47,373 nucleotides of DNA from Desulfomonilia bacterium (GTDB lineage: Bacteria; Desulfobacterota; Desulfomonilia; UBA1062), in NCBI GenBank assembly GCA_036567785.1, contig DATCTV010000052.1:1-47373 (forward strand). Direction: 5' to 3'. This document shows positions 19,577 through 36,399 of this stretch, in pieces. A program made the position numbers and the translations under genes. Position 1 is the first letter of the stretch. Each line of letters starts with the position of its first letter. Below the pieces are notes generated by a model. It ran no database searches, was not told the origin of the DNA, and saw nothing but the letters and a program-made list of their open reading frames with translations.

Positions 19577-19622
19577 GCAATAATCTTGAATGCTGTCCGG
19601 AAAAGGGATAAGCATTAAACGC

Positions 19623-20966
19623 ATGCAGAAAACCCTGCACAACATTCTCATTATCGATGATGAACAGAACATCCGGAAGACCTTGGGATTGTTCCTTGAA
19701 AGCGAAGGGTACAAAGTCCGTCCGGCAGGCGGTTTCAGGGAAGCGCTTGAAGAATGCAGGAAAAATGTCTTTGATCTGGCGTTTGTCGATTTGAGGCTGG
19801 GTGCGGATTCGGGGCTTGACCTCATACCAGAACTGCTTGCCGCATCCCCCTGGCTAAAAATAGTGGTGATTACGGCATATGCATCCATAGATACCGCGGT
19901 TGAAGCCATAAAGCGCGGGGCCACCGACTATATTCCGAAACCCTTTACCCCTGCGCAGGTCAAACTTACGGTAGATAAAATCGCTAACCTGAGGACCCTC
20001 GAGCAGAATATCGAAAGCCTCAAGAGGGATATAGGCAGGATGGCCCCTGAGTTCGAGCTGTCTTCAAGAAATCCGCAGATGCAAAAAGTAATAGAGATAG
20101 TGAAACAGGTTGCGCCGAGCGATTCGACAGTACTCATTACCGGGGAAAACGGAACAGGAAAGAGCCTTATTGCCAGGGCGATACATTCCCTGAGTTCAAG
20201 AGCTGCCAGGCCTTTTGCCGAGATTTCCTGTCCGGCACTCTCTCAGGAGCTTCTGGAAAGCGAACTTTTCGGTCATGTGAAAGGCGCATTTACAGGCGCA
20301 GTCAAGGATAATCCGGGAAGAATTGCATCCTGTGAGGGAGGTACCCTTTTCCTTGATGAGGTAGGCGACCTTCCCATTCTTATTCAGCCCAAGCTTCTCA
20401 GGTTCATCCAGGAAAAATCCTATGAAAGGCTCGGGGAAAGTATAACCAGAAAGGCCGATATCAGGCTTATCGCGGCCACAAACACCGACCTTGAGCTTGC
20501 GGTTAAGGAGAAAAGGTTCAGAGAAGACCTGTTCTACAGGATAAACGTGATTTCGATAGAGATGCCGCCTTTGAGAAAACGCGCTGAAGACATCATTCCT
20601 CTGGCCGAAAAGCTGCTTTCATTCTTTGCAGCAGGCAATCATCATCCAGGACAGCATTTCTCCGCTGACGCCCTGACCGCTCTTAAAGACTATTCCTGGC
20701 CCGGCAATATCAGGGAATTGAGAAACGCCGTTGAAAGGGCGTCAATCCTGTGCAGGAAGGATGTCGTAGGAATCGATTGCCTGCCGGAAAAGATAACCGG
20801 AGTGAAACAGGCCGTTCAGCCGGGTCAGAAAATTTCACTGGAAAAGATGGAGGAAATGCACATAAGGGGCGTCCTTCAATCGGCGAAATCCCTTCAGGAG
20901 GCATCGGACATCCTGGGCGTCGATAAGGCCACACTCTGGCGAAAACGCAAAAAGTACAACATCTGA
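19623..20966 (+). CDS. NtrC-family sigma-54-dependent response regulator
   Basis: An enhancer-binding activator of sigma-54 RNA polymerase. The N-terminal receiver domain (IIDDEQ acidic pocket, phosphoacceptor Asp56 in FVDLRLG) is followed by the AAA+ domain with Walker A GENGTGKS, the sigma-54-contacting GAFTGA loop in HVKGAFTGAVKD, and Walker B FLDEVGDLP. It ends in a Fis-type helix-turn-helix (ASDILGVDKATLWRKRKKY). I use the ATG at 19623; a start at 19590 lacks a ribosome binding site, while AAGGGA lies 14 bases before 19623, somewhat far. The adjacent -24/-12 promoter and paired dyads at 20971-21083 suggest it activates the kinase-kdpFABC operon directly downstream. It is not the OmpR-type KdpE usually paired with Kdp systems. 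Confidence 0.9.
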   Translation: MQKTLHNILIIDDEQNIRKTLGLFLESEGYKVRPAGGFREALEECRKNVFDLAFVDLRLGADSGLDLIPELLAASPWLKIVVITAYASIDTAVEAIKRGATDYIPKPFTPAQVKLTVDKIANLRTLEQNIESLKRDIGRMAPEFELSSRNPQMQKVIEIVKQVAPSDSTVLITGENGTGKSLIARAIHSLSSRAARPFAEISCPALSQELLESELFGHVKGAFTGAVKDNPGRIASCEGGTLFLDEVGDLPILIQPKLLRFIQEKSYERLGESITRKADIRLIAATNTDLELAVKEKRFREDLFYRINVISIEMPPLRKRAEDIIPLAEKLLSFFAAGNHHPGQHFSADALTALKDYSWPGNIRELRNAVERASILCRKDVVGIDCLPEKITGVKQAVQPGQKISLEKMEEMHIRGVLQSAKSLQEASDILGVDKATLWRKRKKYNI

Positions 20967-20970
20967 AAAA

Positions 20971-21019: not shown

Positions 21020-21044
21020 TTTTAAACCTCATATAAAATCCAAC

Positions 21045-21062
21045 TATTCGTTTTGACGAATA
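21045..21062 (+). terminator. AT-rich hairpin between the regulator and the kinase genes
   Basis: TATTCGT-TTTG-ACGAATA, a 7-bp stem followed by TTTTATGG. It may end the regulator transcript. It lies between the enhancer-like dyads and the -24 box, so it could instead be a DNA-binding or bending site. Confidence 0.4.
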
Positions 21063-21067
21063 TTTTA

Positions 21068-21083
21068 TGGCAGGCATGATGCT
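21068..21083 (+). promoter_or_regulatory. Sigma-54 (-24/-12) promoter of the kinase-kdpFABC operon
   Basis: TGGCAGGCATGATGCT matches the consensus TGGCACG-N4-TTGCW at 10 of 12 defined positions, with the invariant GG and GC exactly 10 bp apart. Predicted transcription start is near 21094, 22 bases before the kinase ATG. The sigma-54 activator gene lies immediately upstream. Confidence 0.75.
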
Positions 21084-21115
21084 TGCTCTTTAACCCTTTG
21101 AAGGAGACGATCGTT

Positions 21116-22957
21116 ATGCTCGGACTAAGACAGAAAATGCTTATCGGGTTTATGGGATTATTCCTGATCTCCGCAATAATAGGCGCCATCAGCATAATTC
21201 AGATTACCGATCTCGGGGGTGCGATAGGCTCGATAATGAAGGAGAACTACAGGAGCGTCCGGGCATGTCAGGAAATGAAGGAGTCCATAGAAAGGATGGA
21301 CGACGGTATTGTCCTTATTATCCTGGGCGATAAAGCGAGCGGCAGAAAGCTTATAGCTGAAAATCGCGAGGCATTCACAAAGGCACTCGATATAGAGCTC
21401 GGCAACATAACGCTTCAAGGAGAACATGAGTCGGCACTTGGCATTCAGCACCTGTTCGAAAGGTATGCAAAGATGCTTGGCCGACTTACAGACGGGGGAG
21501 CCGGAAAGGATGAAATGATAAAAGCCTATTTGGATGATCTGCTGCCGCTGGCCTCGGCCATCAGGGGTACGGCCGACAGTGTTCTAACGATGAATCAGCG
21601 TAACATGTATGATTCCGGGAAAAACGCCAGGCGTAAGGCCGCACATTCGCGGAGCATGATGATAGGTTTTCTTTTCGCCGGTGCAGGTCTGACATGCGTA
21701 TATATTCTTCTCATCAGGCGCTGGATACTCAAACCCGTTACAGTGCTGAGTGAATCAGTCAATGAAATCAGAAAAGGCAATCTCGACCTTGTAATAAAAT
21801 CCACTGCAAAAGATGAAATTGGGCAGCTGTCCGAAGCATTCAACGAGATGACGGAGAGCCTCAGAGATTTCAGGCGGAGCGACGAGGCGAAAATGATCAG
21901 ACTTAAGCAATCAGTTCAGCAGACATTTGAAAGCCTGCCGTTCATAGTTGCCCTGCTCGATGGCGGCGGGACCGTAGAAATGTCCACAAAACCTGCAAGG
22001 GAAATCTTCGGCCTTACAAAAGGTGTCAATATTAATAAACTTGATCTCGAATGGATGAAGGAAATCATCAAGTCCGCGCCCGATGGAAACGGAAAAAAGG
22101 TTTTTTCGAAAGGCATTAATGTCATTCAGCATTTTGACAAGGCTCGGGAATATTATTTCCAGCCCATGGCCGTTCCCGTACTGGACAATTTCAAACAGCC
22201 CGCAGGGACAATACTCATTGTAAACGACGTGACGGGACGCATAGAGCATGATGAAATGAAGACCGGCCTTATTTCCGCTGTCTCGCATCAATTGAAGACG
22301 CCGTTGACTTCACTCAGGATGGCCCTTTACATCCTCCTTGATGAGAAGACGGGCGCGGTTTCACCAAAACAGGCCGATCTCCTGCTTACTGCAAGGGATG
22401 AAAGCGACAGGCTGAATGACATCATCGAAAACCTTCTGAACATCAGCAGCCTTGAATCTGGAAAGACCGCTCTTAAAATCGAGCGCGTGAGTTCGGGTAA
22501 CCTTATCCTGGATGCAGCCAAGAGATTCAGAAGTGCGGCCAGGGACAAGGGCATCGATCTGGTCACCGACATACCGGCCGATCTTCCCGATGTGCTGGCC
22601 GATGCGGCCCAGATAGACCATGTCTATGCAAACCTGATTTCTAATGCGCTCAAATACACGCCATCTGGAGGAAACATAACGCTTCATGCCGAAGAGCTTT
22701 TTGAACATGTCTGGTTTACCGTATCCGATAGCGGCATAGGTATACCGGAAAAATATGCCGGCAAAGTATTCGAAAGATTTTTCCGGGTGCCTGAGGGACA
22801 GCCGCAGCCGGGAACAGGCCTCGGGCTGGCTATTGTCAAGGAGATAGTCGAGGCCCATGGCGGAGAGGTCCGCCTTGAAAGCATAGAAGGCAAGGGCTGC
22901 GTCTTCTCGTTTTCGCTGCCGATCATCAGGAAGGCGCCTTCGGCAGAAGAGGTGTGA
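21116..22957 (+). CDS. Membrane sensor histidine kinase (4HB-HAMP-PAS-HisKA-HATPase)
   Basis: A 613-residue sensor kinase, the likely partner of the NtrC-type regulator. The order is TM1 (~8-28), a helical periplasmic sensor of the four-helix-bundle type (~30-180), TM2 (~187-207), HAMP (~208-260), a PAS-like domain (~275-380), HisKA with phosphorylated His391 in AVSHQLKTPLTSL, and an ATPase domain with N-box NLISNALKYTPSGG and G-box GTGLGLAIVKEIVEAHGG. The ATG at 21116 follows AAGGAG by 9 bases. It is the first gene after the sigma-54 promoter and ends 2 bases before kdpF. It has none of the KdpD signature domains, so Kdp control here uses a different kinase; those domains are encoded separately at 27420-29087. 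Confidence 0.92.
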   Translation: MLGLRQKMLIGFMGLFLISAIIGAISIIQITDLGGAIGSIMKENYRSVRACQEMKESIERMDDGIVLIILGDKASGRKLIAENREAFTKALDIELGNITLQGEHESALGIQHLFERYAKMLGRLTDGGAGKDEMIKAYLDDLLPLASAIRGTADSVLTMNQRNMYDSGKNARRKAAHSRSMMIGFLFAGAGLTCVYILLIRRWILKPVTVLSESVNEIRKGNLDLVIKSTAKDEIGQLSEAFNEMTESLRDFRRSDEAKMIRLKQSVQQTFESLPFIVALLDGGGTVEMSTKPAREIFGLTKGVNINKLDLEWMKEIIKSAPDGNGKKVFSKGINVIQHFDKAREYYFQPMAVPVLDNFKQPAGTILIVNDVTGRIEHDEMKTGLISAVSHQLKTPLTSLRMALYILLDEKTGAVSPKQADLLLTARDESDRLNDIIENLLNISSLESGKTALKIERVSSGNLILDAAKRFRSAARDKGIDLVTDIPADLPDVLADAAQIDHVYANLISNALKYTPSGGNITLHAEELFEHVWFTVSDSGIGIPEKYAGKVFERFFRVPEGQPQPGTGLGLAIVKEIVEAHGGEVRLESIEGKGCVFSFSLPIIRKAPSAEEV

Positions 22958-22959
22958 GA

Positions 22960-23043
22960 ATGTACGAGATAATTGTTCTGATAATAGCGATAGCGCTTAT
23001 GGCCTACCTTTTCATTTCAGTCATAATGCCTGAGCGGTTCTGA
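22960..23043 (+). CDS. kdpF: KdpF, small subunit of the K+-transporting ATPase
   Basis: A 27-residue single-span membrane peptide (MYEIIVLIIAIALMAYLF, then ISVIMPERF), too short for ordinary gene callers. In E. coli, KdpF stabilises the KdpABC complex. Its length, hydrophobic core, charged C-terminus with the PE[RK]F ending and position immediately before kdpA identify it. GAGG lies about 7 bases before the ATG. Confidence 0.9.
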   Translation: MYEIIVLIIAIALMAYLFISVIMPERF

Positions 23044-23059: not shown

Positions 23060-24790
23060 GTGTTCAAAGACTTTTACGGATGGATTCAACTTGGAATATT
23101 CATCATTCTGCTGATCTGTCTGACCAAACCCTTTGGCATTTATCTGATGAAGGTTCTCGATCCTTCAGGCAGGACATTACTTGACCCCATTTTAAAGCCA
23201 GTAGAGAAATTCATATATAAGACAACAGGAATAAATCCTGAAAAAACTCAAACATGGAAGGCATATCTTTTTTCTCTGCTGCTGTTCAGTTTAATCGGGT
23301 TCACGATGACATTTGTAATTCTGATTTTTCAGCGCTTCCTTCCACTCAACCCGCAAAAGCTTCCAGGGCTCAGCTGGCATCTGGCATTCAATACGGCGGC
23401 GAGTTTCACCACGAATACCAACTGGCAGAGCTATGCGGGTGAGAAGACGATGTCATATTTTTCACAGATGGTGGCGCTCACCTTCCATAACTTTGCCTCA
23501 GCCGCTTCCGGAATCGCAGCAGCGGCAGCCCTTGTCAGGGGGGTTGCATCAAACGCTTCGAAAACCATCGGAAATTTCTGGTCTGATATCGTAAGGCTTA
23601 ATCTTTATCTGCTGATACCAGCCTCTATAATTTTCGCCGTTTTTCTTGTCTCGGAGGGAGTAGTTGACAACTTCAGGGCATATGATTCTGTTTCTGCCTT
23701 TAATAATGCCTCAGTTCCAGCCCAGATAATAGCACAGGGGCCTGTGGCCTCGCAGGAGGCAGTAAAAATGCTCGGCACGAACGGTGGCGGGTTTATGGGT
23801 GCCAATTCAGCGCATCCATTCGAGAACCCGACACCTCTTACCAACTTTGTCCAGATGCTTTCTATTTTCCTGATCCCTGCCGGGCTGACCTGGTATTACG
23901 GCAGAATGACGGGAAACCAGCGCCACGGATGGACGATATTTTATGTCATGCTTGCACTCTTCCTTGCGTTCATGCTCGTCTGCTGGCATGAGGAGGATTC
24001 GGGAAATCCGGCGTTTGCATCACTCGGTATCGACCTGGCCGCGGGGAATATGGAGGGAAAAGAAGTGCGGTTCGGCATATTCGGGTCATCACTGTTCGCA
24101 GCCGTTACAACAAGCGCATCCTGCGGGGCGGTCAATTCGATGTTCGATTCCTATACCCCGCTGGGCGGCCTTGTCTCATTGCTCAACATCCAGCTGGGTG
24201 AGATCATATTCGGAGGCGTTGGCTCGGGTCTTTACGGCATGATCGTCTTTATTGTCCTTACGGTTTTTCTCTCGGGACTCATGACAGGCCGGACGCCGGA
24301 ATATCTCGGGAAGAAGATCGAGGCCTATGAAGTAAAGGCCGGGGTCCTGTTCATAATGGTTCCCGTGCTTGTCATACTCGGATTCACCTCCGCTGCCGCG
24401 GTCAGCGGATGGGGCCTTGCCGGGCTTAACAATGCTGGGCCGCACGGGCTTACAGAGATGCTTTACGCATTTTCTTCCGCTGCCGGAAACAACGGCAGCG
24501 CCTTTGCCGGACTTAATGCCGACACTCCATGGTATAATGTCATGCTCGGTATTTCGATGATTGCAGGACGGTTCCTTATGATCGCGCCGGAACTGGCCCT
24601 TGCGGGCAGTCTTGCGGCAAAAAAACATACTACGGATGGTTCAGGGTCGTTTCCGGTGACAGGACTCCTTTTTGCATTTCTGCTGGCGTTTGTAATACTT
24701 ATTGTAGGTGCGCTCACTTTCCTGCCGGTGCTTTCACTGGGGCCGATTGTAGAGCATATGCTCATGCTGGAATCAGGCGTCCTGTTTTAG
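23060..24790 (+). CDS. kdpA: Potassium-transporting ATPase subunit A
   Basis: The K+-selective channel-like subunit of the high-affinity Kdp ATPase in the inner membrane. 576 residues with about ten membrane spans. Typical KdpA segments are FNTAASFTTNTNWQSYAGE, LGTNGGGFMGANSAHPFENPTP and VTTSASCGAVNSMFDS, which carry the selectivity-filter loops. It starts at a GTG (23060) preceded by GGAGGAGAAGAGG, 16 bases after kdpF. The family's usual length is about 560. Confidence 0.97.
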   Translation: MFKDFYGWIQLGIFIILLICLTKPFGIYLMKVLDPSGRTLLDPILKPVEKFIYKTTGINPEKTQTWKAYLFSLLLFSLIGFTMTFVILIFQRFLPLNPQKLPGLSWHLAFNTAASFTTNTNWQSYAGEKTMSYFSQMVALTFHNFASAASGIAAAAALVRGVASNASKTIGNFWSDIVRLNLYLLIPASIIFAVFLVSEGVVDNFRAYDSVSAFNNASVPAQIIAQGPVASQEAVKMLGTNGGGFMGANSAHPFENPTPLTNFVQMLSIFLIPAGLTWYYGRMTGNQRHGWTIFYVMLALFLAFMLVCWHEEDSGNPAFASLGIDLAAGNMEGKEVRFGIFGSSLFAAVTTSASCGAVNSMFDSYTPLGGLVSLLNIQLGEIIFGGVGSGLYGMIVFIVLTVFLSGLMTGRTPEYLGKKIEAYEVKAGVLFIMVPVLVILGFTSAAAVSGWGLAGLNNAGPHGLTEMLYAFSSAAGNNGSAFAGLNADTPWYNVMLGISMIAGRFLMIAPELALAGSLAAKKHTTDGSGSFPVTGLLFAFLLAFVILIVGALTFLPVLSLGPIVEHMLMLESGVLF

Positions 24791-24799
24791 GGATTGAAG

Positions 24800-26821
24800 A
24801 TGTCTGCAAAAACACATTCGCTCTTTGATAAAAAAATATTGATACCCGCCATACGGGATTCGTTTGAAAAGCTAAATCCGGGGAACCTTATTAAAAACCC
24901 TGTCATATTCGTTACCGAGGCAGGCGCCGCAATCTCGACAATAGAGCTTTTCATGAACAGAGGCACTCCTTATGCATTTTTCAATCTCCAGATCACCGTG
25001 TGGCTGTGGTTTACCGTGCTGTTCGCAAACTTTGCAGAGGCAATGGCCGAAGGTAGGGGAAAGGCTCAGGCCGATACGCTCAGGAAAACCCGCAAAGAGA
25101 CTTTTGCAAATCGTCTGAAACCGGACGGTTCGGTTGAGAGTGTAGTTTCTGATGATCTTAAGAAGTCGGACATCCTCATGGTCTCGGCGGGTGAAGTGAT
25201 CCCGGCGGACGGAGAGATAATAGAGGGTGTTGCTATGGTTGACGAGTCGGCCATTACGGGCGAATCCGCACCTGTCGTAAGGGAAGCCGGCGGCGACAGG
25301 AGTTCGGTTGTGGGCGGTACTAAGGTGCTGACAGATTTCATCATTATGAGAGTATCCACAAATCCCGGCGAGAGCTTTCTCGATCACATGATATCCCTGA
25401 TCGAAGGGGCAAAAAGGAAAAAGACCCCCAATGAGATTGCGCTAACCATATTGCTGTCAGCGCTTACAATAATATTCCTGGCTGTCATCATATCGCTCAA
25501 GTTTTTCAGCATATATTCAGGCCTCGCATTATCCATAACCGTGCTGGCCGCACTTCTGGTATGCCTTATTCCGACGACGATAGGCGGCCTTCTGAGTGCA
25601 ATCGGCATTGCCGGGATCGACCGTATGGTGCAGAAAAACGTGCTTGCCATGAGCGGCCGCGCGGTTGAAGCGGCGGGTGACGTCGATGTGCTGCTGCTCG
25701 ATAAGACAGGAACGATTACTCTCGGCGACAGGCAGGCCGTTGCATTCATTCCTTCGGCAGGTGTAAGCATCGAGGAGCTTGCGAGCGCCGCACAGCTTTC
25801 CTCTCTCGCGGATGAAACACCTGAAGGAAGGAGCATCGTGGTTCTGGCCAAGGAATACGGGCTTCGCGGCCGCTCGATTGCCGAAATGCCGCATGCCGTG
25901 TTTGTAAATTTCTCGGCACAGACAAGGATGAGCGGTGTCGATATAGACGGCAAAAGCATCAGGAAAGGCTCCACGGATGTTATTACGAAGTTCGCAGGGA
26001 AGCCTCTTCCTGAAGACATCGTAAAATCGGTAGAGTCAATTGCGCAGACAGGAGGCACCCCGCTTATCGTGGCTGAGAACGACAGGATCCTGGGCGCAAT
26101 CCATTTAAAGGACATTGTAAAGGGCGGCCTTAAGGACAGGTTCGAGCGTTTCAGGGCAATGGGCATAAAGACCGTCATGATAACGGGGGACAATTACCTC
26201 ACGGCATCGGCCATTGCGAAAGAGGCAGGTGTGGACGACTTTGTGGCCGAAGCGAGACCGGAAGATAAGCTTGCCATCATCAGAAGGGAGCAGGCCATGG
26301 GTCATATGGTTGCAATGACCGGAGACGGCACAAATGATGCACCCGCGCTTGCCCAGGCCGATGTCGGAGTTGCCATGAATACCGGTACACAGGCTGCAAA
26401 AGAGGCCGGCAACATGATTGACCTCGATTCAAATCCCACAAAGCTGATCGAAGTGGTCGAGACAGGCAAGCAGATGCTTATTACGAGAGGGGCGCTCACC
26501 ACGTTCAGCATTGCTAACGACGTCGCCAAATATTTTGCGATAATTCCTGCAATGCTGGTAAGCGTGTTTCCCGTCATGGCGCCGTTCAATATCATGAGGC
26601 TCAATTCCCCTCAGAGTGCGATACTGAGTGCGGTAATCTTCAATGCCCTTATCATTATAGGGCTGATTCCTCTTGCCCTCAGAGGTGTCAGGTTCAGGCC
26701 GGTAAGTGCTTCATCGATGCTCAGGAGGAACCTTTTCATATACGGCCTCGGTGGCGTTATTGCACCCTTTCCGGGCATCAAGATCATAGACATGATCATT
26801 CATGCTCTTGGTGCCGCATAA
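24800..26821 (+). CDS. kdpB: Potassium-transporting ATPase subunit B
   Basis: The P-type ATPase subunit that hydrolyses ATP to drive K+ uptake. 673 residues. The phosphorylated Asp301 lies in [13 protein letters not shown]. The hinge motif [20 protein letters not shown], actuator motif [19 protein letters not shown] and ion-path segment [18 protein letters not shown] are all present. The ATG at 24800 follows AGGGA by 6 bases; a TTG at 24794 is also in frame. It sits 9 bases after kdpA and abuts kdpC. Confidence 0.97.
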
Positions 26822-26833
26822 ATGGAAATAATC

Positions 26834-27439
26834 ATGAAAAAAATCATTACCGAGATCAGAACGGCCGTTGTCATGACACTTTTGATCGGGATAATCTGCT
26901 GCGGAATATACCCCGCTCTTGTTTGGGGTCTGGCGCAGTGGCTGTTCAATGATAATGCGAACGGTTCATTGATTGTCAAGGATTCGAAAATCGCAGGTTC
27001 AAGGCTCCTGGCAAGAGGATTTACAGGTGATTCCTATTTCCATCCCAGACCTTCCGCAGCCGGTACGGGCTATGATGCGGCAGGATCTGGCGGGAGCAAT
27101 CTGGGGCCGCTTTCAAAAAGGCTCTACGATTCAGTTAAAGAAAGGGCGGAGGCTTACAGGAGGATTAACGGTCTGGCCCCGGATGAGACTGTCCCGGTAG
27201 ACGCCGTGACTGCTTCAGCCAGCGGGCTTGATCCTCATATCAGCCCAGGGAATGCATTGATTCAGGCGAAAAGGGTTGCAAAGGCAAGAGGCATGAGCCA
27301 AGAAACCGTAATAAAGCTGGTGGAGCATAATACGAAGGGCAGGCGGCTGGGCGTGTTCGGCGAGCCACGCGTGAATGTCCTTATGCTGAACATCGATCTT
27401 GACAGGCAGGAAAAAGCGGATGGAAGCAAACAGGGCTGA
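26834..27439 (+). CDS. kdpC: Potassium-transporting ATPase subunit C
   Basis: A single-span subunit that assists ATP binding and assembly of KdpFABC. 201 residues: a membrane segment at ~10-32 and a periplasmic domain with NGSLIVKDSKIAGSRLLAR, YFHPRPSAAGTGYDAAGSGGSNLGP, DAVTASASGLDPHISPGNAL and a C-terminal LGVFGEPRVNVLMLN. These are all KdpC hallmarks. I prefer the ATG at 26834 because GGA lies 7 bases before it and it gives the usual short N-terminus; an ATG at 26822 is also in frame and abuts the kdpB stop. The gene overlaps the next by 20 bases. Confidence 0.95.
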   Translation: MKKIITEIRTAVVMTLLIGIICCGIYPALVWGLAQWLFNDNANGSLIVKDSKIAGSRLLARGFTGDSYFHPRPSAAGTGYDAAGSGGSNLGPLSKRLYDSVKERAEAYRRINGLAPDETVPVDAVTASASGLDPHISPGNALIQAKRVAKARGMSQETVIKLVEHNTKGRRLGVFGEPRVNVLMLNIDLDRQEKADGSKQG

Positions 27440-29087
27440 TTCGTTTCTCAAAATGATCCAGGGCTCAAAACGGGGCCGTCTGAAGGTCTACCTCGGCTAT
27501 GCCGCGGGAGTGGGCAAGACCTATGAAATGCTCCAGGAAGCGCACAGGCTTCAGGCTTCAGGCGTGGACGTGGTGGTGGGACTTGTCGAAACTCACGGAC
27601 GAAAAGAAACAGGGGCGCTGCTTAATGGCCTTGAAATCATCCCCCGCATCCGCCATGAGTACAGGGGAATCACGCTTGAGGAGATGGACACCGATGCGAT
27701 AATTTCCAGAAGGCCTCAGGTGGTTCTTGTCGACGAACTGGCTCATACGAATGTCCCGGGCGGCAGGTATGCCAAACGATACGAGGATGTCCAGAAGATA
27801 CTCTCGGCAGGGATACACGTCATAACGACGCTCAACATACAGCACATTGAAAGCCTTTATAACATCGTGGAAAAAGCATCAGGCGTAAAGGTTCTCGAAA
27901 GGATACCGGATTCTGTTCTTGCAGATGCGGATGAGATCGTAAACGTGGACCTTACCATAGAGGATCTTACCGACAGGCTGAAACAGGGCAAGATATACCC
28001 TCACGAAAGGGTGGAAAAGGCCCTTTCAAACTTCTTCAGGAAGGCCAACCTCGAGCAGCTGAGAGAGCTGGCACTGAGGGAGCTGGCTTCCCAGATCGAT
28101 CTTAAGACAAGAGAGACAAACGGGGAAGAAGCTGCCTCGACCCCTGATCAGATAATGGTGTGCCTGAGCTCCATGGGGCCCAACAGCGAAAAACTTCTAA
28201 GGTATGCCTCAAGGTTTGCAGGCAGGCTCAACAGGAACTGGTATGCGGTATATATACAGACCCCTTCGGAAGACCCTGCGAATGTCGATTCAAAAACCCA
28301 GCGCATTCTCAACGACACACTCACGCTTGCCAAACAGCTTGGCGCCCTTGTCTTCACATATAAGGGGCAAGATATAGCGGCGACGATACTTCAGTTTGCA
28401 AGGGAATACAGGGTGGGACATATCATTCTTGGCAGCCCCGCATTAATGCCATGGTGGAAACGGCTTCTGGGAAAAAAGGACATCGCAGAAAGGCTGATGC
28501 ACGAAAGCAGTGATACGACAATCGTTGTTCTTGATACGAAGAAACCGGCAATAGCGGAGAGTATAGATGAAGAAAAGCCTGCCGAAATTTTAAAATCCCT
28601 TTCACCGTCCTCATCCGCCAACGCGAACCTCTTGAGCAGGTTCATGCCCGAAGAGGGGATTATCATCTACAAGGACAGCATAGGCAAAGATGAGGTATTA
28701 AAAGATCTGTGCAGTCTTGCAGCAGGATTTTCAGGCATGGAGGATCCCGGAATGATTCTTTCAGCTGTACTTGAAAGGGAAAGCCAGGGATCGACGTTTT
28801 ATAACGAGGGCGCTGCCCTGCCGCATGCAAGGATCAGCGGGCTCAGAAAAAGTGTTGTGGTGCTGGGGTTAACTAAAGGCGGCGTGTCAGGGTCCGGTAC
28901 AGACAAACCTGTTCAATGCGTGTTCCTGCTGCTTTCACCGCTTGAGCATCCCGACATGCAGGTGCGTCTGCTGGGACTCATCAGCAGGACATTAATGGAT
29001 AAGGAGCTGACAGAAAAACTGCTCGCTTCCGGGACTTCAAAAGAAGCCTACGATACGCTCGCTAACTGGGAATATAAAAGACAATAG
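27420..29087 (+). CDS. KdpD-like sensor domain fused to Usp and PTS EIIA(Ntr)-like domains, no kinase
   Basis: 555 residues, probably cytoplasmic. Residues ~18-230 are the KdpD N-terminal domain, with Walker A YAAGVGKTYEML (Lys33, Thr34) and VLVDELAHTNVPG. Residues ~245-385 form the KdpD-type universal-stress domain, including GHIILGSPALMPWWKRLLG. Normally membrane spans, HisKA and HATPase domains follow. Instead, residues ~415-550 form a PTS EIIA type-2 domain with the phosphorylatable His469 in GAALPHARISGLRKSVVVLG and VFLLLSPLEHPDMQVRLLG. In E. coli, EIIA(Ntr) (PtsN) binds KdpD and modulates kdp expression, so this fusion joins partners known elsewhere. It overlaps the end of kdpC and is the last gene of the operon. 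A role tuning the kinase at 21116-22957 or the pump is inference. Start chosen at ATG 27420, after AGGAAAAAG. Confidence 0.9.
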   Translation: MEANRADSFLKMIQGSKRGRLKVYLGYAAGVGKTYEMLQEAHRLQASGVDVVVGLVETHGRKETGALLNGLEIIPRIRHEYRGITLEEMDTDAIISRRPQVVLVDELAHTNVPGGRYAKRYEDVQKILSAGIHVITTLNIQHIESLYNIVEKASGVKVLERIPDSVLADADEIVNVDLTIEDLTDRLKQGKIYPHERVEKALSNFFRKANLEQLRELALRELASQIDLKTRETNGEEAASTPDQIMVCLSSMGPNSEKLLRYASRFAGRLNRNWYAVYIQTPSEDPANVDSKTQRILNDTLTLAKQLGALVFTYKGQDIAATILQFAREYRVGHIILGSPALMPWWKRLLGKKDIAERLMHESSDTTIVVLDTKKPAIAESIDEEKPAEILKSLSPSSSANANLLSRFMPEEGIIIYKDSIGKDEVLKDLCSLAAGFSGMEDPGMILSAVLERESQGSTFYNEGAALPHARISGLRKSVVVLGLTKGGVSGSGTDKPVQCVFLLLSPLEHPDMQVRLLGLISRTLMDKELTEKLLASGTSKEAYDTLANWEYKRQ

Positions 29088-29202: not shown

Positions 29203-31008
29203 TCAGTCCGAATACATGTTTTCTATCTCTTTCTCATACCTCTTGTTGATGACATTGCGTTTGAGTTTGAGCGTAGGCGTCAGCTCATCCGTTTCCTGGG
29301 ACCATTCTTTATCGAGGAGCGTGAACTTCTTGATTTTCTCGACCCTGCCCAGATGTTCCGTGCTCTTTCTGACCTCATCCTCAAAGAGCGCCTTCACTTC
29401 GGGCATGGCAAGGAGATTCCTCCTCGAATCCGTTTCGATTCCATGCCCGGCGGCCCATTTTTTCAATTCCGGGAATGCCGGTACAATGAGTGCGGTCAGA
29501 TAGTTGCGGTTGTCACCGATGACTGCAGCCTGTTCGATAAAAGAAGACGTCTTCAAGCTGTTTTCTATATTCTGCGGTGAGATGTTTTTGCCTCCGGATG
29601 TGATGATGAGGTCCTTTTTCCTGTCCGTAATGACAAGAAAACCGTCCTCATCCCATTTGCCGACGTCCCCGGTGAGGAACCACCCGTCCCGCATGGAATC
29701 CTCCGTCAGGTCAGGCTTGTTGTGGTAGCCAAGGAAGTTGTTCCCCCGGATAAGGATTTCTCCATCGGGCGCAAGTTCCACTTCGAATCCTGGCATGGCC
29801 TTGCCCACAGTCCCGTAACGGCATTCTTCAAAGGTGGTCATTGTGCCGCCGATTGTCTCGCTGAGACCATAGAACTCTATTACCTGAATTCCGATACTAT
29901 GCACGAACTCACCTATCTCGGCGGATAACGGCGCACCGGCAGAGACTGCGAACTGGAGACGGCCGCCAAGGCCGTTGCGGATTTTTCCGAATACGAGGGA
30001 GTCAGCGGCCTTCCATGCGAGGCCGAGCCACAGGGGAAGCGGCTTGTGTGCATTGAGACGCCTGCTCCGGCTCTTTCCAGTCATGATTGCCATATTGAAG
30101 ATAAGGCGTTTTATTAACGGTCCGTTCGAGGCTGTCCCGACGATCCTGGCATGCATCTTTTCGAAAATCCTGGGCACGGCGCAGAAATATGTCGGCCTTA
30201 CCTCCGCCATATTCTGGGCCAGGGTATCAATGGTCTCGGCCAGGGCCAGCGGTACATTCCGGAAGATATTATAATAGTAGCCGGACACGCGGGGGTAGAA
30301 GTGTGAAAGGGGAAGGACCAGCAGGCACAGACTCTTCCGGTTATCGATCCTTATGAGCCGGTCTATGGAGTTAAGTACATGACTGATGTTCAGGTGGCTC
30401 ATCATGCAGCCCTTGGGCGGGCCGGTAGTCCCCGAGGTGTATACGATTGTGGCCAGGTCGCCCGGCTTCACACGTTTGCGCCTCTCGGCAATGACATCCG
30501 AGACCTCTGCCAGAGAAGAGCGTCCGGTTTCCAGCAGGGCCGCGAATGATATGACATCTCCCTCTGCTTCACCGTCGATAATGATTATCTTCGGTCTTTG
30601 TCTCTGGTCGGGAAACGCGTTTTTGATCTTATCTAGTTGCTCCCTGTTCTCCACGATCACTATACCGGCATCGGAGTCGTTTATGATATAAGCGCACTGT
30701 TCCGGCGTGTTGGTATGGTAGATGGGCACGTTGACCCCGCACGCCGCCATGATGCCGAGGTCTGCTATTATCCATTCCAGCCTGTTATAGGACAGGATAC
30801 ATACCTTATCACCGGGCTCAAGACCTAGTTTCACGAAGCCTGCGGCACAGCATGTCACCAGTTCCTTCAGGTCTTGCCAGCTGAGGTCTTCATAAGCCCC
30901 GCCTTTTTCCCGTTTATACTTGATGATTGCCCTGTGAGGGTCTGAAGCTGCATAGCGATCCATAAGATCCGTAAGGATGAACTCTTCAAATGGTTTTGTC
31001 ATTGTCAT
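29203..31008 (-). CDS. Long-chain acyl-CoA synthetase (AMP-forming)
   Basis: Activates a carboxylic acid to its CoA thioester via an acyl-adenylate. A 601-residue ANL-superfamily enzyme with the AMP-binding P-loop TIVYTSGTTGPPKGCMMSH, motif EFYGLSETIGG, the GWFLTGDVGKWDEDGFLVI hinge region and KDLIITSGGKNISPQNIEN. It most resembles FadD15/long-chain ligases because of the extended LKLKRNVINKRYEKEIE C-terminus. It is the last gene of a leftward five-gene operon, and its ATG overlaps the stop of the dehydratase subunit gene upstream by four bases. The true substrate is unknown. Confidence 0.9.
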   Translation of the reverse strand: MTMTKPFEEFILTDLMDRYAASDPHRAIIKYKREKGGAYEDLSWQDLKELVTCCAAGFVKLGLEPGDKVCILSYNRLEWIIADLGIMAACGVNVPIYHTNTPEQCAYIINDSDAGIVIVENREQLDKIKNAFPDQRQRPKIIIIDGEAEGDVISFAALLETGRSSLAEVSDVIAERRKRVKPGDLATIVYTSGTTGPPKGCMMSHLNISHVLNSIDRLIRIDNRKSLCLLVLPLSHFYPRVSGYYYNIFRNVPLALAETIDTLAQNMAEVRPTYFCAVPRIFEKMHARIVGTASNGPLIKRLIFNMAIMTGKSRSRRLNAHKPLPLWLGLAWKAADSLVFGKIRNGLGGRLQFAVSAGAPLSAEIGEFVHSIGIQVIEFYGLSETIGGTMTTFEECRYGTVGKAMPGFEVELAPDGEILIRGNNFLGYHNKPDLTEDSMRDGWFLTGDVGKWDEDGFLVITDRKKDLIITSGGKNISPQNIENSLKTSSFIEQAAVIGDNRNYLTALIVPAFPELKKWAAGHGIETDSRRNLLAMPEVKALFEDEVRKSTEHLGRVEKIKKFTLLDKEWSQETDELTPTLKLKRNVINKRYEKEIENMYSD

Positions 31009-32255
31009 AGCGAATACCCCTTTCGAGAAAGCAGCATTTCCATAAATGCGTCTGCACGTGTCTGGAACTGTGCGGTGGAGAAGTTCCTGTCGTCCATATG
31101 GTCGGCATCGATGATGAGCGCAGGAATGTCCATCTCTTCAAGCTCCCGTTTGATGTCCATCTGGCCCAGAGTTATCGGCACGCATGACTTGTTCCTGTGG
31201 AGTATTGCCCCGTCGATTGCATACTCTCGGCAGGCCTTCAGGACCATTTCCTTGCGTTTCTTGATTGACACGCAGGATACGAGCGGGTAGGAGGTCAGGG
31301 TCTTACGGGCCAGGGTTTCCATCGGATTGTCCGCATCGAGACGCAGCGACCATGCAGCGGAATATGTCTCTGCCACAACCACCCCTCCCATCTTCTCGAA
31401 GTAGTTGAAGAGTCCCATATTGTACCACAGCGGGATATTGTCCCAGAATAGCCTGACCTTTTCGTTTTCAAGTATACCAACTTTTTGTTCTGCTCTCTCT
31501 TTCAATTCGTCTCTTACACGGGTCAGGTAGTCGACTGCCGTCTGCGTACCCTGCCGTGTCACCATAACGAACATGATGCCTATCTCCGAGGCCGAGATCG
31601 GAGTGGGGATGAAACGCCGGTAGCTCATGATCTCGTCCCAGAGCTCACAGGCCTTGTCCGAAAGCCTCACGACTTCCTTTAGCCTGTCATAGTCGAGTTT
31701 CCGGCCGGTTACTTCTTCGAGGAAATTCACAAGCCGCTTCATTTCGAAAACGGCATAATTCATATGGTGGTCCCTGATGTTCTCGATGGCGACCTGAGGC
31801 ATGTCGGCATAGAAGGTCCGTGCCTGAGGGAATCTCCTCATGAGGGCCTGAAAGATTTTCATGACCGGTGAGCATCCGCCCTGCGGCGGCAGTATTATGT
31901 CCGGCTCTGGCAGGCCGCCAAGGGGGTTGTCCGGCCCTCCCATCATGCCGTGAACATAGCCGATTATGTTCCTGAGATATCCGCACAGGTCACGCGAGTA
32001 GCCCATGCCCTCGCAGACCTCGAAGTTTTTGTGGGTAAGTCCGAATGCGGCGCAGACGGGGGACCAGTTTTCCGGAAAGACGGGCTGCAATCCCATGGCA
32101 TAGAACAGCTCGATACCGCCGTTCATCGGGGGCATCCACCCTACAGGCCTGCCTTCCTTCTTCGCCTCATGACACTCCTGGTAGTATTCAGCAATAATAA
32201 GTGGAAGCTCCTTAGCCGTGTTCAGTCTTTTCTTTGATTTTGAACTCTTCTCCAT
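31005..32255 (-). CDS. 2-hydroxyacyl-CoA dehydratase family subunit (HgdB/BcrB-like), first of a pair
   Basis: A 416-residue member of the 2-hydroxyacyl-CoA dehydratase/benzoyl-CoA reductase fold. In the family each subunit holds a [4Fe-4S] cluster through cysteines and takes part in ketyl-radical chemistry. Cysteines in likely ligand positions occur in WSPVCAAFGLTHKNFEVC, YSRDLCGYLRN and PPQGGCSPVMK. It follows the partner subunit gene by only 3 bases and overlaps the downstream ligase start by 4, so the three are coupled. The ATP-dependent activator (HgdC/FldI type) is not in the window. Dehydration of a 2-hydroxyacyl-CoA versus reduction of an aromatic CoA ester cannot be decided from the sequence. 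Confidence 0.88.
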   Translation of the reverse strand: MEKSSKSKKRLNTAKELPLIIAEYYQECHEAKKEGRPVGWMPPMNGGIELFYAMGLQPVFPENWSPVCAAFGLTHKNFEVCEGMGYSRDLCGYLRNIIGYVHGMMGGPDNPLGGLPEPDIILPPQGGCSPVMKIFQALMRRFPQARTFYADMPQVAIENIRDHHMNYAVFEMKRLVNFLEEVTGRKLDYDRLKEVVRLSDKACELWDEIMSYRRFIPTPISASEIGIMFVMVTRQGTQTAVDYLTRVRDELKERAEQKVGILENEKVRLFWDNIPLWYNMGLFNYFEKMGGVVVAETYSAAWSLRLDADNPMETLARKTLTSYPLVSCVSIKKRKEMVLKACREYAIDGAILHRNKSCVPITLGQMDIKRELEEMDIPALIIDADHMDDRNFSTAQFQTRADAFMEMLLSRKGYSL

Positions 32256-32258
32256 CTT

Positions 32259-33371
32259 TCACCATCCGATCATTTCGAAGAAACTTTCGAGCCTTGTCTT
32301 TAATTGACCTTCCATGATCCCTGTTTCATCCAGTTCCACCATGATGGAGGGAATCCCCTTGTCCTTAAGTGCGTCGTTCAGGAACGGATAATCACTCAGA
32401 TGCGGAGTACAGTATTTCTGGAAGACAAAAACCATCGCGCACGCTTTTGAGTGTTTCATCAGATCGAGCAGCCTGGGGAGCCTGTATTCCGCGCTTGAAC
32501 GGGACGGACAAGGAAAACGGTTCATGAACCGGTCGATAAGCTGATCCATGGGGTCGCTTCCATGCCCGTACGCCGGGACAAAATTCCGCATCCCCGTGCA
32601 GAGATCATCCGCCACAACCCTGCCTCCGGATTCTTCGATAATCCTGAGAACTTTGGTTTCTTCGATAAGGCTGCCGGAAACGAGAATTGGTACGCCTTCA
32701 CCTGGATCGCATGTTTCAGGCAGCGCGTCGATCAGATCATGAAGCATGGAGAGATACCGCTCAGGAGCCGTTATGAACCCCGCCTGTACTATGGTCAGGA
32801 AATCTTCCGCGCTGAGAGGAAGCCTGTGCTCATAGCGGATCTCATAGAGTTCGGACATGAGTGTCCGGATTCTCCCGTATATATCAAGAGAATCAGCGAG
32901 ACGCTCTTGAGAAAAATCACCGCCCGCACGTTTGAGAATCTCTGCAAGATCCTCGAGTCCTGACCTGAGAAATGATCTCGACTCATCCTGGTCCACATAG
33001 GGAAGCGGAAGTATATGGAAAGGATCGGCTCCCATATTTGCCTCCCAGATATTGGCCACCCCGCAGGCTGCGTCGCAGGTATATCCCTGGACGAGGCCAT
33101 CCAGACATTTGTAGGAGCCGTTCAATCCCTTTTCCACAGCCTTTCTCAGATAAGGGCAAATAAAATCCGGTGTAAGCGTATATGCCTTTTCAACGGTTCC
33201 CGCATCACCAAGGATCCTTACAGGAATGAATCCGGAGGCGTGAATTAATTCCACCGGGGTGTAGGTACAGAAATAGCCGATGAGCCTCTTTCCTTCGGAT
33301 GCAAGGGTTTGCAACTCCTGATCCATGTTCCGGACAATCTCATCAAAGGGTCTTGCCAGATCGGATATCAT
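32259..33371 (-). CDS. 2-hydroxyacyl-CoA dehydratase family subunit, second of a pair
   Basis: A 370-residue paralogue of the neighbouring subunit and probably its heterodimer partner. The family N-terminal motif appears as KRLIGYFCTYTPVELIHASGF, followed by FICPYLRKAVEKGL, KCLDGLVQGYTCDAACGVAN and, near the C-terminus, VFVFQKYCTPHLSDYPF. Conserved cysteines are in the positions expected for cluster ligands. An AAGGAGG ribosome binding site precedes the ATG. It lies between the class III CoA-transferase and the other dehydratase subunit, which fits a pathway in which a hydroxy-acid is first converted to its CoA ester and then dehydrated. Confidence 0.88.
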   Translation of the reverse strand: MISDLARPFDEIVRNMDQELQTLASEGKRLIGYFCTYTPVELIHASGFIPVRILGDAGTVEKAYTLTPDFICPYLRKAVEKGLNGSYKCLDGLVQGYTCDAACGVANIWEANMGADPFHILPLPYVDQDESRSFLRSGLEDLAEILKRAGGDFSQERLADSLDIYGRIRTLMSELYEIRYEHRLPLSAEDFLTIVQAGFITAPERYLSMLHDLIDALPETCDPGEGVPILVSGSLIEETKVLRIIEESGGRVVADDLCTGMRNFVPAYGHGSDPMDQLIDRFMNRFPCPSRSSAEYRLPRLLDLMKHSKACAMVFVFQKYCTPHLSDYPFLNDALKDKGIPSIMVELDETGIMEGQLKTRLESFFEMIGW

Positions 33372-33406
33372 GTGTGTCGGTTCCTCCTTCTTTATTGGAT
33401 GGAATA

Positions 33407-34606
33407 TTATACTTTGCCCACTGCATTTATCATCTCGAGGTCCTTTATCTCTTTTTCGGTTAATCCAAGGTGCGTTAGAATTTCGTGGTTATGATACCCG
33501 AGGGTCACTCCGCAGGCCGGGGCATAATAATGGCCTGATTTAAATTTTATTGGATTTCCTATCTGCCTGACTTTGCCGCCTTTGCCGGTTGACACTTCAA
33601 CTACCATGTCCCTTTCGGACAGAGGCGGGTTTGCTATCGCCTCACCAACTGAGTAGACCGGCTCGACGCATGCATCGCATGCCATGAATTTTTCGCGCCA
33701 GTATGCCAGGGGCTTCTCCGCGATGATATTCCGAACGCACTCCTTTGCGTTCCAGTTGAGAATCCCGCTCTCGATTAAGTCGGGACGGCCTATGGTCTCA
33801 CAGAACACCTTGAAGAACTTTTCCTCAATGGGTCCTACGGAAAGATATTTTCCGTCCGATGTGGGATAGAAGTCATACAGGGCGCCTCCGCTAAGGAAGT
33901 CTTCCCGCTGCGGCTCGACGGCACCGGCCAGATGTCCGGCTATGGTGAAGAGCGACATGGAGAAAACGCCGTCCGTGATGGACACGTCGATATAGTCGCC
34001 CTTTCCCGTATTCATGCGGTTGATGCAGGCAGCCAGCACCCCTATGATAACGTTCTTCGATCCGCTGGCGATGTCAGCGATCTGTATACCCGTCAGCACC
34101 GGCCCTGTATCCCTGCGTCCGGATATGGACTCGACGCCTGAGAGTGCCATATAGTTTATGTCATGGCCGGCCCGGCCTGAAAACGATCCGGTCTGGCCGT
34201 ATCCGCTTAGGGAGCAGTAGATGAGAGACGGGTTGATCTTTGAAAGAGCTTCGTAGCCGAGCCCCAGCCTGTCCATGGTACCGGGCCGGAACTGCTCGAT
34301 GACGACATCGTATTCGGATATAAGCTTAAATATTATCTCACGAGCTTCTTTTTTCTTGAGGTTCAGCGAGAGGGATTTTTTTCCGCGGTTGAGGTGAGCG
34401 TATACGGCGCTTATTCCGTCCACATACGGGGGGTAAAGCCGCACTATATCGGGGTTCTCGCTGTTCTCCACCTTTATGATGTCCGCGCCGAGATCGGAAA
34501 GGATCATTGTTCCGTACGGCCCGGGGATCAGGTATGAGAAGTCGAGGATCTTGATATGGGACAAGGGTCCTTGTTTTACCGAAGTTTTAACCTTTTGTTC
34601 AAACAT
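33407..34606 (-). CDS. Class III CoA-transferase (CaiB/BaiF family)
   Basis: Transfers CoA between carboxylic acids via an aspartyl-CoA thioester. 399 residues, the normal family length. Signatures are KILDFSYLIPGPYGTMILSD near the N-terminus, DLGADIIKVE, the NRGKKSLSLNLKKKE segment, and FSGRAGHDINYMALSG, whose Asp is the expected catalytic residue. A ribosome binding site AAAAGGA precedes the ATG. It is the second gene of the operon. Together with the dehydratase subunits it resembles 2-hydroxyacid fermentation modules, where the transferase recycles CoA from the unsaturated product onto the incoming hydroxy-acid. Confidence 0.92.
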   Translation of the reverse strand: MFEQKVKTSVKQGPLSHIKILDFSYLIPGPYGTMILSDLGADIIKVENSENPDIVRLYPPYVDGISAVYAHLNRGKKSLSLNLKKKEAREIIFKLISEYDVVIEQFRPGTMDRLGLGYEALSKINPSLIYCSLSGYGQTGSFSGRAGHDINYMALSGVESISGRRDTGPVLTGIQIADIASGSKNVIIGVLAACINRMNTGKGDYIDVSITDGVFSMSLFTIAGHLAGAVEPQREDFLSGGALYDFYPTSDGKYLSVGPIEEKFFKVFCETIGRPDLIESGILNWNAKECVRNIIAEKPLAYWREKFMACDACVEPVYSVGEAIANPPLSERDMVVEVSTGKGGKVRQIGNPIKFKSGHYYAPACGVTLGYHNHEILTHLGLTEKEIKDLEMINAVGKV

Positions 34607-34666
34607 GTTCTTATCCTTTTGGTGATTAGACGGTGCGAATCAGGTTAATGTACAGGTTTGCGATTT

Positions 34667-36352
34667 TCATCCGCCCAACACCTTTCTGAGGTCTTTCTTC
34701 AGGACCTTGCCCACATTGCTGAGCGGAAGCTGGTCAAAGAACTCTATCTTTTTAGGTATCTTGTATGGCGCAAGCCTCTTCTGCAAATATGATAATATAT
34801 CTGTCTTGAGTTGATCGCTTCCTTTCACACCGGGTTTGAGGACAACGGCGGAGGCCACGATCTCCGAGCCCGGTCTCTTTTCATCGGGCAGCCCGACGGT
34901 GGCCGCCATTGCGATATCCGGATGTTCAACAAGCACTTCGTCCACAACTCGGGTGAATACCTTGAAGCCGGAAACATTTACCATGTCCTTGATCCGGTCC
35001 ACTATGGAGAGATACCCTTGATCATCCATGATTCCTACATCTCCGGTGCGGAACCAGCCGTCTTTGAGCACATTCGCCGTCTCCTCTGGCTGGTTGTGAT
35101 AGCCTGAAAATACCTGAGGACCGGAGACCGTGATCTCGCCTGGTTCGCCCATGGGAACCGGTTCGCCCGTATCGGGGTCGACAATCTTCACTCCGGTGTC
35201 CATGAAAGGGATTCCGACAGAGCCAACCTTTTTCACCCCGTTGAAGGGGGGAGCGGCGATACACGTCGTGGTTTCGGTCAGGCCGTATGTCTCGATCAGC
35301 TTGCCGCCGGTGAGCGTTTCGAACTCCTTTATATTCTCGGCCGGGAAAGGCGCCGAGCCGCTGATAAAATATTTTATCCCCTTAAAATTGGCATTCCTGA
35401 ACTCCGGGAGTTTCATCATTTCAAGGTATATGGTCGGCACTGCGAGAATGGCGGAGGGATTGTAACGCCGGATAGCGCTTACCATGAACTCCATGTCGCG
35501 CGGGTTCGGCACCATGACATACGTGCATCCCAGAGCAATGCTCGTCATGGTAATAAAGCACCCTGCCATATGGAACATGGGGTACGGGCAGATGAGTGTC
35601 TCTCCGCCTTTCCTGAAACCGTACCAGACCTGGTTCTGGATAATGTGCCTGACAAGGTTTTTGTGGGACAGCAGGGCCCCCTTCGGATTGCCGGTAGTGC
35701 CACCGGTGTATACCATTACGCATGGGCTTGACGGATCGGCCTTCCTGTTTACAAAATTCTCCGGTTTCCCCTGAATGGATTTCGTGAAGCGTTCCACACG
35801 AATCCCCGGCATATCAGAAACCGGTGCTGTCGGGATTTTTTTCATCAGCAAACCGGGTATCTTCTTGAAAAGCGGGAGATAATCGGCAATGGAGGTAACC
35901 ACGATTGTTTTGATTGAAGTTTTAACGGCAACGGCTGCAACCCTGGAAAAAAGGAGGTCGAGGGTGACAATGATCTTGGCGCCGGAATCGTTCAGCTGGT
36001 ATTCAAGTTCCTCCGGAGTCAGGAGAGGACTTACACCCTGATATATACACCCGGCTTTCTCGATACCCACGAGTGAGATATAGCAGGCAGGGATGTTGGG
36101 CGTGTGGACGGCAATGAAGTTACCTGGGGCCGAGCCTTCTTCCTCAAGAAAATGAGCGAACCTGTTTGACAGGTTGTCCAACTCCCGATAACTGAACATT
36201 CTCCCCATATAGTGAAGAGCGGCCCTGTCTGGCATCTTATCAAATGCATCCCTTATGAAATCCTGATAGGACACGTCCGGATACTCCAGAGATTCCGGAA
36301 CCTCTTTGTCGTAGGAAGAAATCCATGGTTTTTTCGAGTAAGCGTCATTCAT
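34667..36352 (-). CDS. AMP-forming acyl-CoA ligase, operon leader gene
   Basis: A 561-residue ANL-superfamily ligase that makes an acyl-CoA from a free acid, ATP and CoA. Motifs are MVYTGGTTGNPKGALLSH (P-loop), LIETYGLTETTTC, GWFRTGDVGIMDDQGYL and DRIKDMVNVSGFKVF, with the C-terminal catalytic lysine region LPLSNVGKVLKKDLRK. The ATG at 36352 has an AGGAGG ribosome binding site 5-6 bases upstream; an ORF start at 36397 would lie inside the promoter/operator. It is the first gene of the operon controlled by the palindrome at 36386-36399. The operon thus has two ligases, one at each end. Confidence 0.92.
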   Translation of the reverse strand: MNDAYSKKPWISSYDKEVPESLEYPDVSYQDFIRDAFDKMPDRAALHYMGRMFSYRELDNLSNRFAHFLEEEGSAPGNFIAVHTPNIPACYISLVGIEKAGCIYQGVSPLLTPEELEYQLNDSGAKIIVTLDLLFSRVAAVAVKTSIKTIVVTSIADYLPLFKKIPGLLMKKIPTAPVSDMPGIRVERFTKSIQGKPENFVNRKADPSSPCVMVYTGGTTGNPKGALLSHKNLVRHIIQNQVWYGFRKGGETLICPYPMFHMAGCFITMTSIALGCTYVMVPNPRDMEFMVSAIRRYNPSAILAVPTIYLEMMKLPEFRNANFKGIKYFISGSAPFPAENIKEFETLTGGKLIETYGLTETTTCIAAPPFNGVKKVGSVGIPFMDTGVKIVDPDTGEPVPMGEPGEITVSGPQVFSGYHNQPEETANVLKDGWFRTGDVGIMDDQGYLSIVDRIKDMVNVSGFKVFTRVVDEVLVEHPDIAMAATVGLPDEKRPGSEIVASAVVLKPGVKGSDQLKTDILSYLQKRLAPYKIPKKIEFFDQLPLSNVGKVLKKDLRKVLGG

Positions 36353-36385
36353 GATTACCTCCTGATAAAGCAAATAGACATTGTT

Positions 36386-36399
36386 TATTGTATACAATA
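36386..36399. promoter_or_regulatory. Operator palindrome TATTGTATACAATA for the divergent GntR regulator
   Basis: A perfect 14-bp palindrome. The ATTGTATACAAT core fits the GntR/FadR-type pattern of a GT-N-AC dyad. It covers the -10 box of the leftward acyl-CoA operon promoter and lies 203 bases upstream of the GntR-family gene, which makes repression of the operon the simplest model. Confidence 0.7.

What the first reader, a model, noticed from the sequence alone, without database searches (positions are those of the whole stretch)
27420..29087. KdpD sensor half fused to a PTS EIIA(Ntr)-like domain, with the kinase missing
The KdpD and Usp domains are intact (Walker A AAGVGKT), but the membrane spans, HisKA and HATPase are replaced by an EIIA type-2 domain keeping the active histidine (ALPHAR, His469). 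In E. coli, EIIA(Ntr) interacts with KdpD, so this is a natural fusion of interacting partners. It suggests direct phosphotransferase input into potassium control.
Basis: partly seen in the sequence, partly recalled or inferred. Interest (0 to 1): 0.75.

Follow-up and report, generated by a model that had tools for sequence, protein, structure and literature searches.

The report
Potassium-regulator kinase fused to PTS domain
A protein that in other bacteria switches off a potassium pump by phosphorylating it carries, here and in about 80 or more other species, a built-in phosphotransferase (PTS) domain, which suggests that a cell's carbon-energy state is wired directly into its potassium uptake.

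Summary
The fusion is real. ORF 27420-29087 (555 aa) is KdpD domain (E 5e-94), Usp and PTS_EIIA_2 (res 408-549, E 5e-22). It ends a tight operon: sigma-54 response regulator, separate histidine kinase, kdpF-A-B-C, fusion. In 78 fusions the EIIA histidine (His469) is invariant, one of only 3 invariant columns in a fast-changing domain. At least 80 species carry it, mostly Desulfobacterota, Chlorobiota, Hydrogenedentota and Planctomycetota; the KdpD-Usp tree fits one origin.

The reading needs correcting. The membrane and histidine-kinase parts are absent, but the retained KdpD domain is itself a known serine kinase that inhibits KdpB (Silberberg 2024), and its catalytic residues are kept. The sites where EIIANtr binds KdpD in E. 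coli (HisKA) and Sinorhizobium (GAF) are the missing ones, so this is not a simple fusion of two known contact surfaces.

New here: the cassette also sits beside KimA-like or Trk potassium transporters. Four such genomes lack kdpA; one carries two cassettes, Kdp-linked and KimA-linked. Ten fusion-bearing Chlorobiaceae have EI but no diadenylate cyclase.

Best reading: a c-di-AMP/PTS-gated serine kinase controlling potassium uptake. Phosphorylation of His469 and gating are inferred, not shown.

The parts
19590..20966 (+). sigma-54-dependent response regulator (receiver, AAA+, Fis-type HTH)
   Evidence: Pfam; conserved at the head of the cassette
21083..22957 (+). separate membrane histidine kinase (weak 4HB, HAMP, HisKA, HATPase)
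   Evidence: Pfam; conserved neighbour
22960..23043 (+). kdpF-like 27-aa membrane peptide
   Evidence: read from sequence
23060..24790 (+). kdpA
   Evidence: PF03814 E 4e-228
24794..26821 (+). kdpB, with TGES motif (the serine that E. coli KdpD phosphorylates, Ser162)
26822..27439 (+). kdpC
   Evidence: PF02669 E 2e-68
27420..29087 (+). KdpD-Usp-EIIA fusion protein, 555 aa
27468..28097 (+). KdpD domain (atypical serine kinase module), residues 17-226
   Evidence: PF02702 E 5e-94; active-site residues mapped to E. coli KdpD
27495..27521 (+). Walker A, G26-X5-GKT (32-34)
   Evidence: 77/78 conserved, one row truncated there; = E. coli G36 K37 T38
27732..27737 (+). Walker B Asp105-Glu106
   Evidence: 78/78 and 77/78; = E. 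coli D109 E110
28149..28526 (+). Usp domain, residues 244-369
   Evidence: weak Pfam hit; fold match to 7ji4
28545..28631 (+). variable linker, residues 376-404
   Evidence: low conservation; low pLDDT
28641..29066 (+). PTS EIIA type-2 domain, residues 408-549
   Evidence: PF00359 E 5e-22; 1a6j Z 22.2
28776..28778 (+). Arg453 (active-site arginine of EIIA)
   Evidence: 76/78
28824..28826 (+). His469, predicted phospho-acceptor histidine
   Evidence: 78/78; aligns with the active His of 1a6j
28959..28961 (+). Gln514, at the place of the second active-site histidine of EIIAs
   Evidence: Gln 45 / His 32 of 78

Best explanation
The protein is a soluble short-form KdpD: an atypical serine kinase domain (output on the potassium pump, by phosphorylating the TGES serine of KdpB), a Usp domain (probable nucleotide input), and a built-in EIIA domain that EI and HPr can phosphorylate on His469. 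The EIIA phosphorylation state, which follows PEP/pyruvate and so carbon-energy status, gates the serine kinase. The metabolic state thus sets how strongly the potassium importer is held off, while the histidine kinase and sigma-54 regulator of the same operon set how much importer is made. Shown: domains, conserved catalytic residues, operon, presence of EI and HPr. Inferred from E. coli and Deinococcus work: the serine kinase activity. Inferred only: phosphorylation of His469, gating, and its direction.
For: Walker A, Walker B and R186 match the residues that are essential in E. coli KdpD for phosphorylating KdpB. KdpB with TGES in 59/60 clusters. The fusion follows kdpC directly (gap of 60 bases or less) in 56 of 73 loci with a recognised upstream gene. 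His469 78/78, Arg453 76/78, in a domain whose mean major-residue frequency is only 0.51. EI in 43/44 and HPr in 41/44 fusion genomes. All 10 sampled Chlorobiaceae fusion genomes lack a detectable diadenylate cyclase but keep EI and the histidine, so there c-di-AMP is unlikely to be the input. This genome has a diadenylate cyclase and its only type-2 EIIA domain is the one in the fusion. Published precedent: short KdpD-Usp of Deinococcus is a serine kinase gated by c-di-AMP.
Against: No biochemistry. Trp39 of E. coli is Tyr35 here (Tyr also in D. radiodurans). Some cassettes have no kdpABC but keep the kinase residues, so KdpB cannot be the only target. The second EIIA histidine is Gln in most copies. 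The c-di-AMP motif is only partly kept (positions of Ser246 and Tyr/Phe250 differ). EIIA~P could act on the histidine kinase instead. Three of the 44 genomes lack a detectable EI or HPr or both (MAG gaps possible).
Confidence: 0.5

Rival explanations
1. The fusion acts mainly on transcription: KdpD-Usp-EIIA binds the separate histidine kinase of the operon and passes nucleotide and PTS state to the sigma-54 regulator, a split equivalent of full-length KdpD with EIIANtr. The importer is exchangeable; the RR-HK-fusion trio is the core.
For: Cassettes without kdpABC keep RR, HK and fusion beside a KimA homologue (L113, L117, L121, L122) or TrkA+TrkH (L112); four of these five genomes have no KdpA at all. 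HK is the direct upstream gene in 12 loci. One genome has two cassettes, one with Kdp, one with KimA. Free EIIANtr activates KdpD kinase in E. coli and rhizobia.
Against: Catalytic residues of the serine kinase are conserved nearly everywhere; the fusion most often sits at the end of kdpABC, as published for serine-kinase chains. The known EIIANtr docking sites are absent from the fusion. The kdp-less clusters are few and partly recent losses (L117 and L119 are close).
Confidence: 0.3
2. The EIIA domain is a binding module without phospho-switching, for example docking on transporters as free PtsN does on TrkA and YcgO.
For: EIIANtr is known for regulatory binding; Gln514 replaces the second histidine in most copies; Trk or KimA genes lie beside several fusions.
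Against: His469 and Arg453 conserved while the rest of the domain drifts; EI and HPr nearly always present.
Confidence: 0.13
3. Ordinary full KdpD or annotation artefact: the ORF is a truncated KdpD joined to EIIA by chance.
For: Public annotation would probably call it sensor histidine kinase KdpD (NF007793 is the top hit).
Against: 80 species, one clade, conserved operon.
Confidence: 0.01

Closest known systems
Short KdpD/Usp serine kinase (Deinococcus geothermalis DgKdpD; PMC11018627)
   Same: KdpD domain with Walker A/B, Usp domain, no membrane or histidine-kinase part, gene after kdpC, separate two-component system
   Different: adds a C-terminal EIIA domain; also found with KimA or Trk instead of Kdp
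EIIANtr (PtsN), which regulates KdpD, TrkA and YcgO
   Same: fold (1a6j Z 22.2), active histidine and arginine, link to potassium control
   Different: fused in cis to the serine-kinase half; second histidine mostly Gln; below the PtsN model cut-off; PtsN normally binds the HisKA or GAF region that is absent here
ptsN2 within alpha-proteobacterial kdp operons (PMC13104625)
   Same: an EIIA gene placed in a kdp operon
   Different: a separate gene acting on a full-length KdpD, not a fusion
Full-length E. coli KdpD
   Different: no transmembrane, GAF, DHp or CA domains

Membership tests
KdpD atypical serine kinase (short form) | KdpD domain PF02702 | tested here: met
   E 5e-94
KdpD atypical serine kinase (short form) | Walker A G-X5-GKT, Walker B D-E, adenine-site arginine | tested here: met
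   G32 K33 T34, D105 E106, R186 map to E. coli 36-38, 109-110, 190
KdpD atypical serine kinase (short form) | adenine-site aromatic residue (E. coli W39) | tested here: inconclusive
   Tyr35 here instead of Trp; Tyr also in D. radiodurans short KdpD, Trp in 15/78 fusions; whether Tyr serves is not known
KdpD atypical serine kinase (short form) | phosphorylates KdpB Ser162 | not testable with these tools
   substrate motif TGES is present in the window's KdpB
KdpD_non_kinase (NF038185) | NCBIfam cut-off 550 bits | tested here: not met
   370.7 bits
KdpD sensor histidine kinase | TM, GAF, HisKA and HATPase domains | tested here: not met
   none in the ORF
EIIANtr / PtsN | PTS_EIIA_2 domain and fold | tested here: met
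   E 5e-22; 1a6j Z 22.2
EIIANtr / PtsN | phosphorylatable histidine conserved | tested here: met
   His469 78/78, (sequence only)
EIIANtr / PtsN | NCBIfam PtsN equivalog cut-off | tested here: not met
   TIGR01419 51.3 bits against 138.7; fructose model 51.1
EIIANtr / PtsN | EINtr (PtsP) with N-terminal GAF as donor | tested here: not met
   own EI is 589 aa and starts directly with PEP-utilisers_N
c-di-AMP-binding KdpD-USP | motif (A/G/C)XSXSX2N(Y/F) | tested here: not met
   CLSSMGPNS: first Ser and Asn kept, second Ser and Tyr/Phe not
c-di-AMP-binding KdpD-USP | USP fold of 7ji4 | tested here: met
   Z 17.1, rmsd 2.5 over 125 residues

The most novel reading that the evidence does not exclude
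RR-HK-KdpD/Usp/EIIA is a mobile, PTS-gated potassium-control cassette. It is spread over several phyla, serves exchangeable importers (Kdp, KimA, Trk), and its serine kinase has targets other than KdpB.
Probability: 0.35. Interest if true: 0.82.

Novelty: new variant of a known kind. Interest (0 to 1): 0.62.

Why it matters
How the PTS controls potassium uptake is debated, with discrepant models in E. coli (PMC13104625), and what controls the KdpD serine kinase is stated to be open (PMC11018627). A protein that carries kinase, nucleotide sensor and PTS phospho-acceptor in one soluble chain makes both testable with four purified proteins. If the KimA- and Trk-linked copies act on those importers, the KdpD domain would be a general potassium-transport kinase rather than a Kdp accessory.

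Tried and rejected
Sigma-54 promoters between the histidine kinase and kdpA, and upstream of the regulator: no better than shuffles. Loss of free ptsN as a general trait of fusion genomes: rejected, nearly all related fusion genomes also have a 150-200 aa EIIA; only the window's genome clearly lacks one. HprK: no match in this genome. Literature: four searches found no paper on a KdpD-EIIA fusion; subscription papers and the supplementary tables of PMC11018627 could not be read, so an earlier mention is possible. First structure prediction with 16 rows was poor; 78 rows gave pLDDT 75. In the first tree two short forms were extracted wrongly and were replaced. Plasmids: no place covered 80% of the fusion.

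Full report
Observation. The ORF at 27420-29087 (+) encodes 555 aa with KdpD (17-226), Usp (244-369) and PTS_EIIA_2 (408-549). The start codon overlaps the kdpC stop and has a purine-rich ribosome site. The predicted model (pLDDT 75, EIIA part about 90) matches three solved structures part by part: KdpD N-domain 2r8r, the c-di-AMP-bound KdpD-USP 7ji4 and EIIANtr 1a6j. EIIANtr chains are the top four rows by Z (22.2 to 19.8), above mannitol/fructose types (about 16-17.6).

Survey. In 60 related genomes, 15 besides the window's own carry the fusion end to end, and one more has its C-terminal part on a contig edge. A scan of 84,980 species with the Usp-EIIA part gave 147 confirmed relatives. The best 80 were kept, all matching Usp and EIIA nearly end to end. 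Record titles name Desulfobacterota (Syntrophaceae, Desulfomonile, Desulfobacterales), Chlorobiaceae, Hydrogenedentota, Phycisphaerales, Aminicenantes/Acidobacteria, Latescibacterota, Riflebacteria, Fibrobacteria and Verrucomicrobia. Phyla with a single metagenome bin are less safe than Chlorobiota (11), Hydrogenedentota (6) and Planctomycetota (5). In 247 genomes drawn from the window's phylum, 14 KdpD-domain ORFs are fusion-sized, 13 full length, 9 short and 6 of 660-692 aa. Twelve fusion-sized ones were read and all hold the three domains; the four 660-692 aa ones printed read as membrane spans and a GAF-like part without a kinase part. On the KdpD-Usp tree all fusions fall in one clade (SH-aLRT 100) that holds one non-fusion, so one origin and one loss fit. 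That one short form comes from an N-containing contig and is not a strong case.

Conservation. Over 78 fusions: Walker A Lys and Thr 77 (one row is truncated there), Walker B Asp 78 and Glu 77, Arg186 78, His469 78, Arg453 76. The EIIA part drifts (mean major-residue frequency 0.51 against 0.79 for KdpD and 0.77 for Usp), yet E454, H469 and G488 are invariant. The residue at the second EIIA histidine is Gln in 45 and His in 32.

The kinase is not missing. Silberberg et al. [quoted passage not shown] that KdpD/Usp-only chains lack the histidine kinase and can be stimulated by c-di-AMP; and that such chains follow the pump genes while a separate two-component system controls expression. The window has just this layout: response regulator, histidine kinase, kdpFABC, KdpD-Usp chain. 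Every E. coli residue reported as essential maps onto the same residue here except W39, which is Tyr as in D. radiodurans. The sections of that paper that I read name no EIIA-containing class.

The PTS side. The genome has one HPr, one EI next to it (589 aa, no N-terminal GAF), a mannose-type EIIA gene after rapZ, and no other type-2 EIIA domain. EI is found in 43 and HPr in 41 of 44 fusion genomes. In E. coli free PtsN binds the HisKA part of KdpD, in S. fredii the GAF domain (PMC9239096). Both are absent here, so any cis effect must use another surface.

The c-di-AMP side. This genome and 30 of 44 other fusion genomes have a diadenylate cyclase, but none of the 10 Chlorobiaceae do. The published c-di-AMP motif is only partly kept. 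In Chlorobiaceae the EIIA domain is therefore the only recognised input left.

Exchangeable importers. In L113, L117, L121 and L122 (Chlorobiaceae) a KimA homologue (PDB 6s3k, E 6e-65 for the L117 copy) stands between regulator and histidine kinase with no kdpABC at the locus. In L112 TrkA and TrkH stand there. Whole-genome search finds no KdpA in four of these five genomes. The fifth has a second complete RR-HK-kdpABC-fusion cassette elsewhere. KimA also lies beside kdp clusters in L094, L119, L120 and L126, and beside the fusion in L129. The kinase residues are intact in these copies, except E106D in the Trk-linked one. So either the serine kinase has other substrates, or the chain signals to the histidine kinase. 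These genomes are MAGs, some losses look recent (L117 against L119), and absence of kdpA may be a gap.

Judgement. I favour a PTS- and nucleotide-gated serine kinase with KdpB as its usual target, with signalling to the histidine kinase as a strong, not exclusive, rival. The architecture is a new variant of the short KdpD kind. I found no description in the open library, with the limits named. The finding is worth a bench test because the prediction is sharp and the parts are soluble.

Noticed in passing
window 29203-36397 (- strand): Beside the operon, on the other strand, lies a run of genes that read as acyl-CoA ligases, 2-hydroxyacyl-CoA dehydratase-like proteins and a class III CoA transferase (by sequence impression only).
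   Followed up: no
L035-L046, between HK and kdpF (e.g. L037 about 10103-9931): Many relatives encode a second short membrane peptide of about 28 aa directly before kdpF; it is absent in the window.
   Followed up: no
L121 and L159 (one genome, G063): Two paralogous RR-HK-fusion cassettes in one genome, one with KimA, one with KdpABC.
   Followed up: partly
L101, L103, L116: In Desulfobacterales-type clusters kdpABC is on the opposite strand, between the regulator and the HK-fusion pair.
   Followed up: no
L049 (G046): HK - KdpD/Usp without EIIA (392 aa) - RR, nested inside the fusion clade: possible loss of EIIA; the contig holds Ns.
   Followed up: partly
G000:C27 about 19964-22750 and L161 8199-10646: A mannose-type EIIA, EIIB and EIIC set follows rapZ at one locus, with an EIID-like gene, HPr and EI at another (EIIB, EIIC and EIID by sequence impression); no ptsN or hprK found in the genome.
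   Followed up: partly
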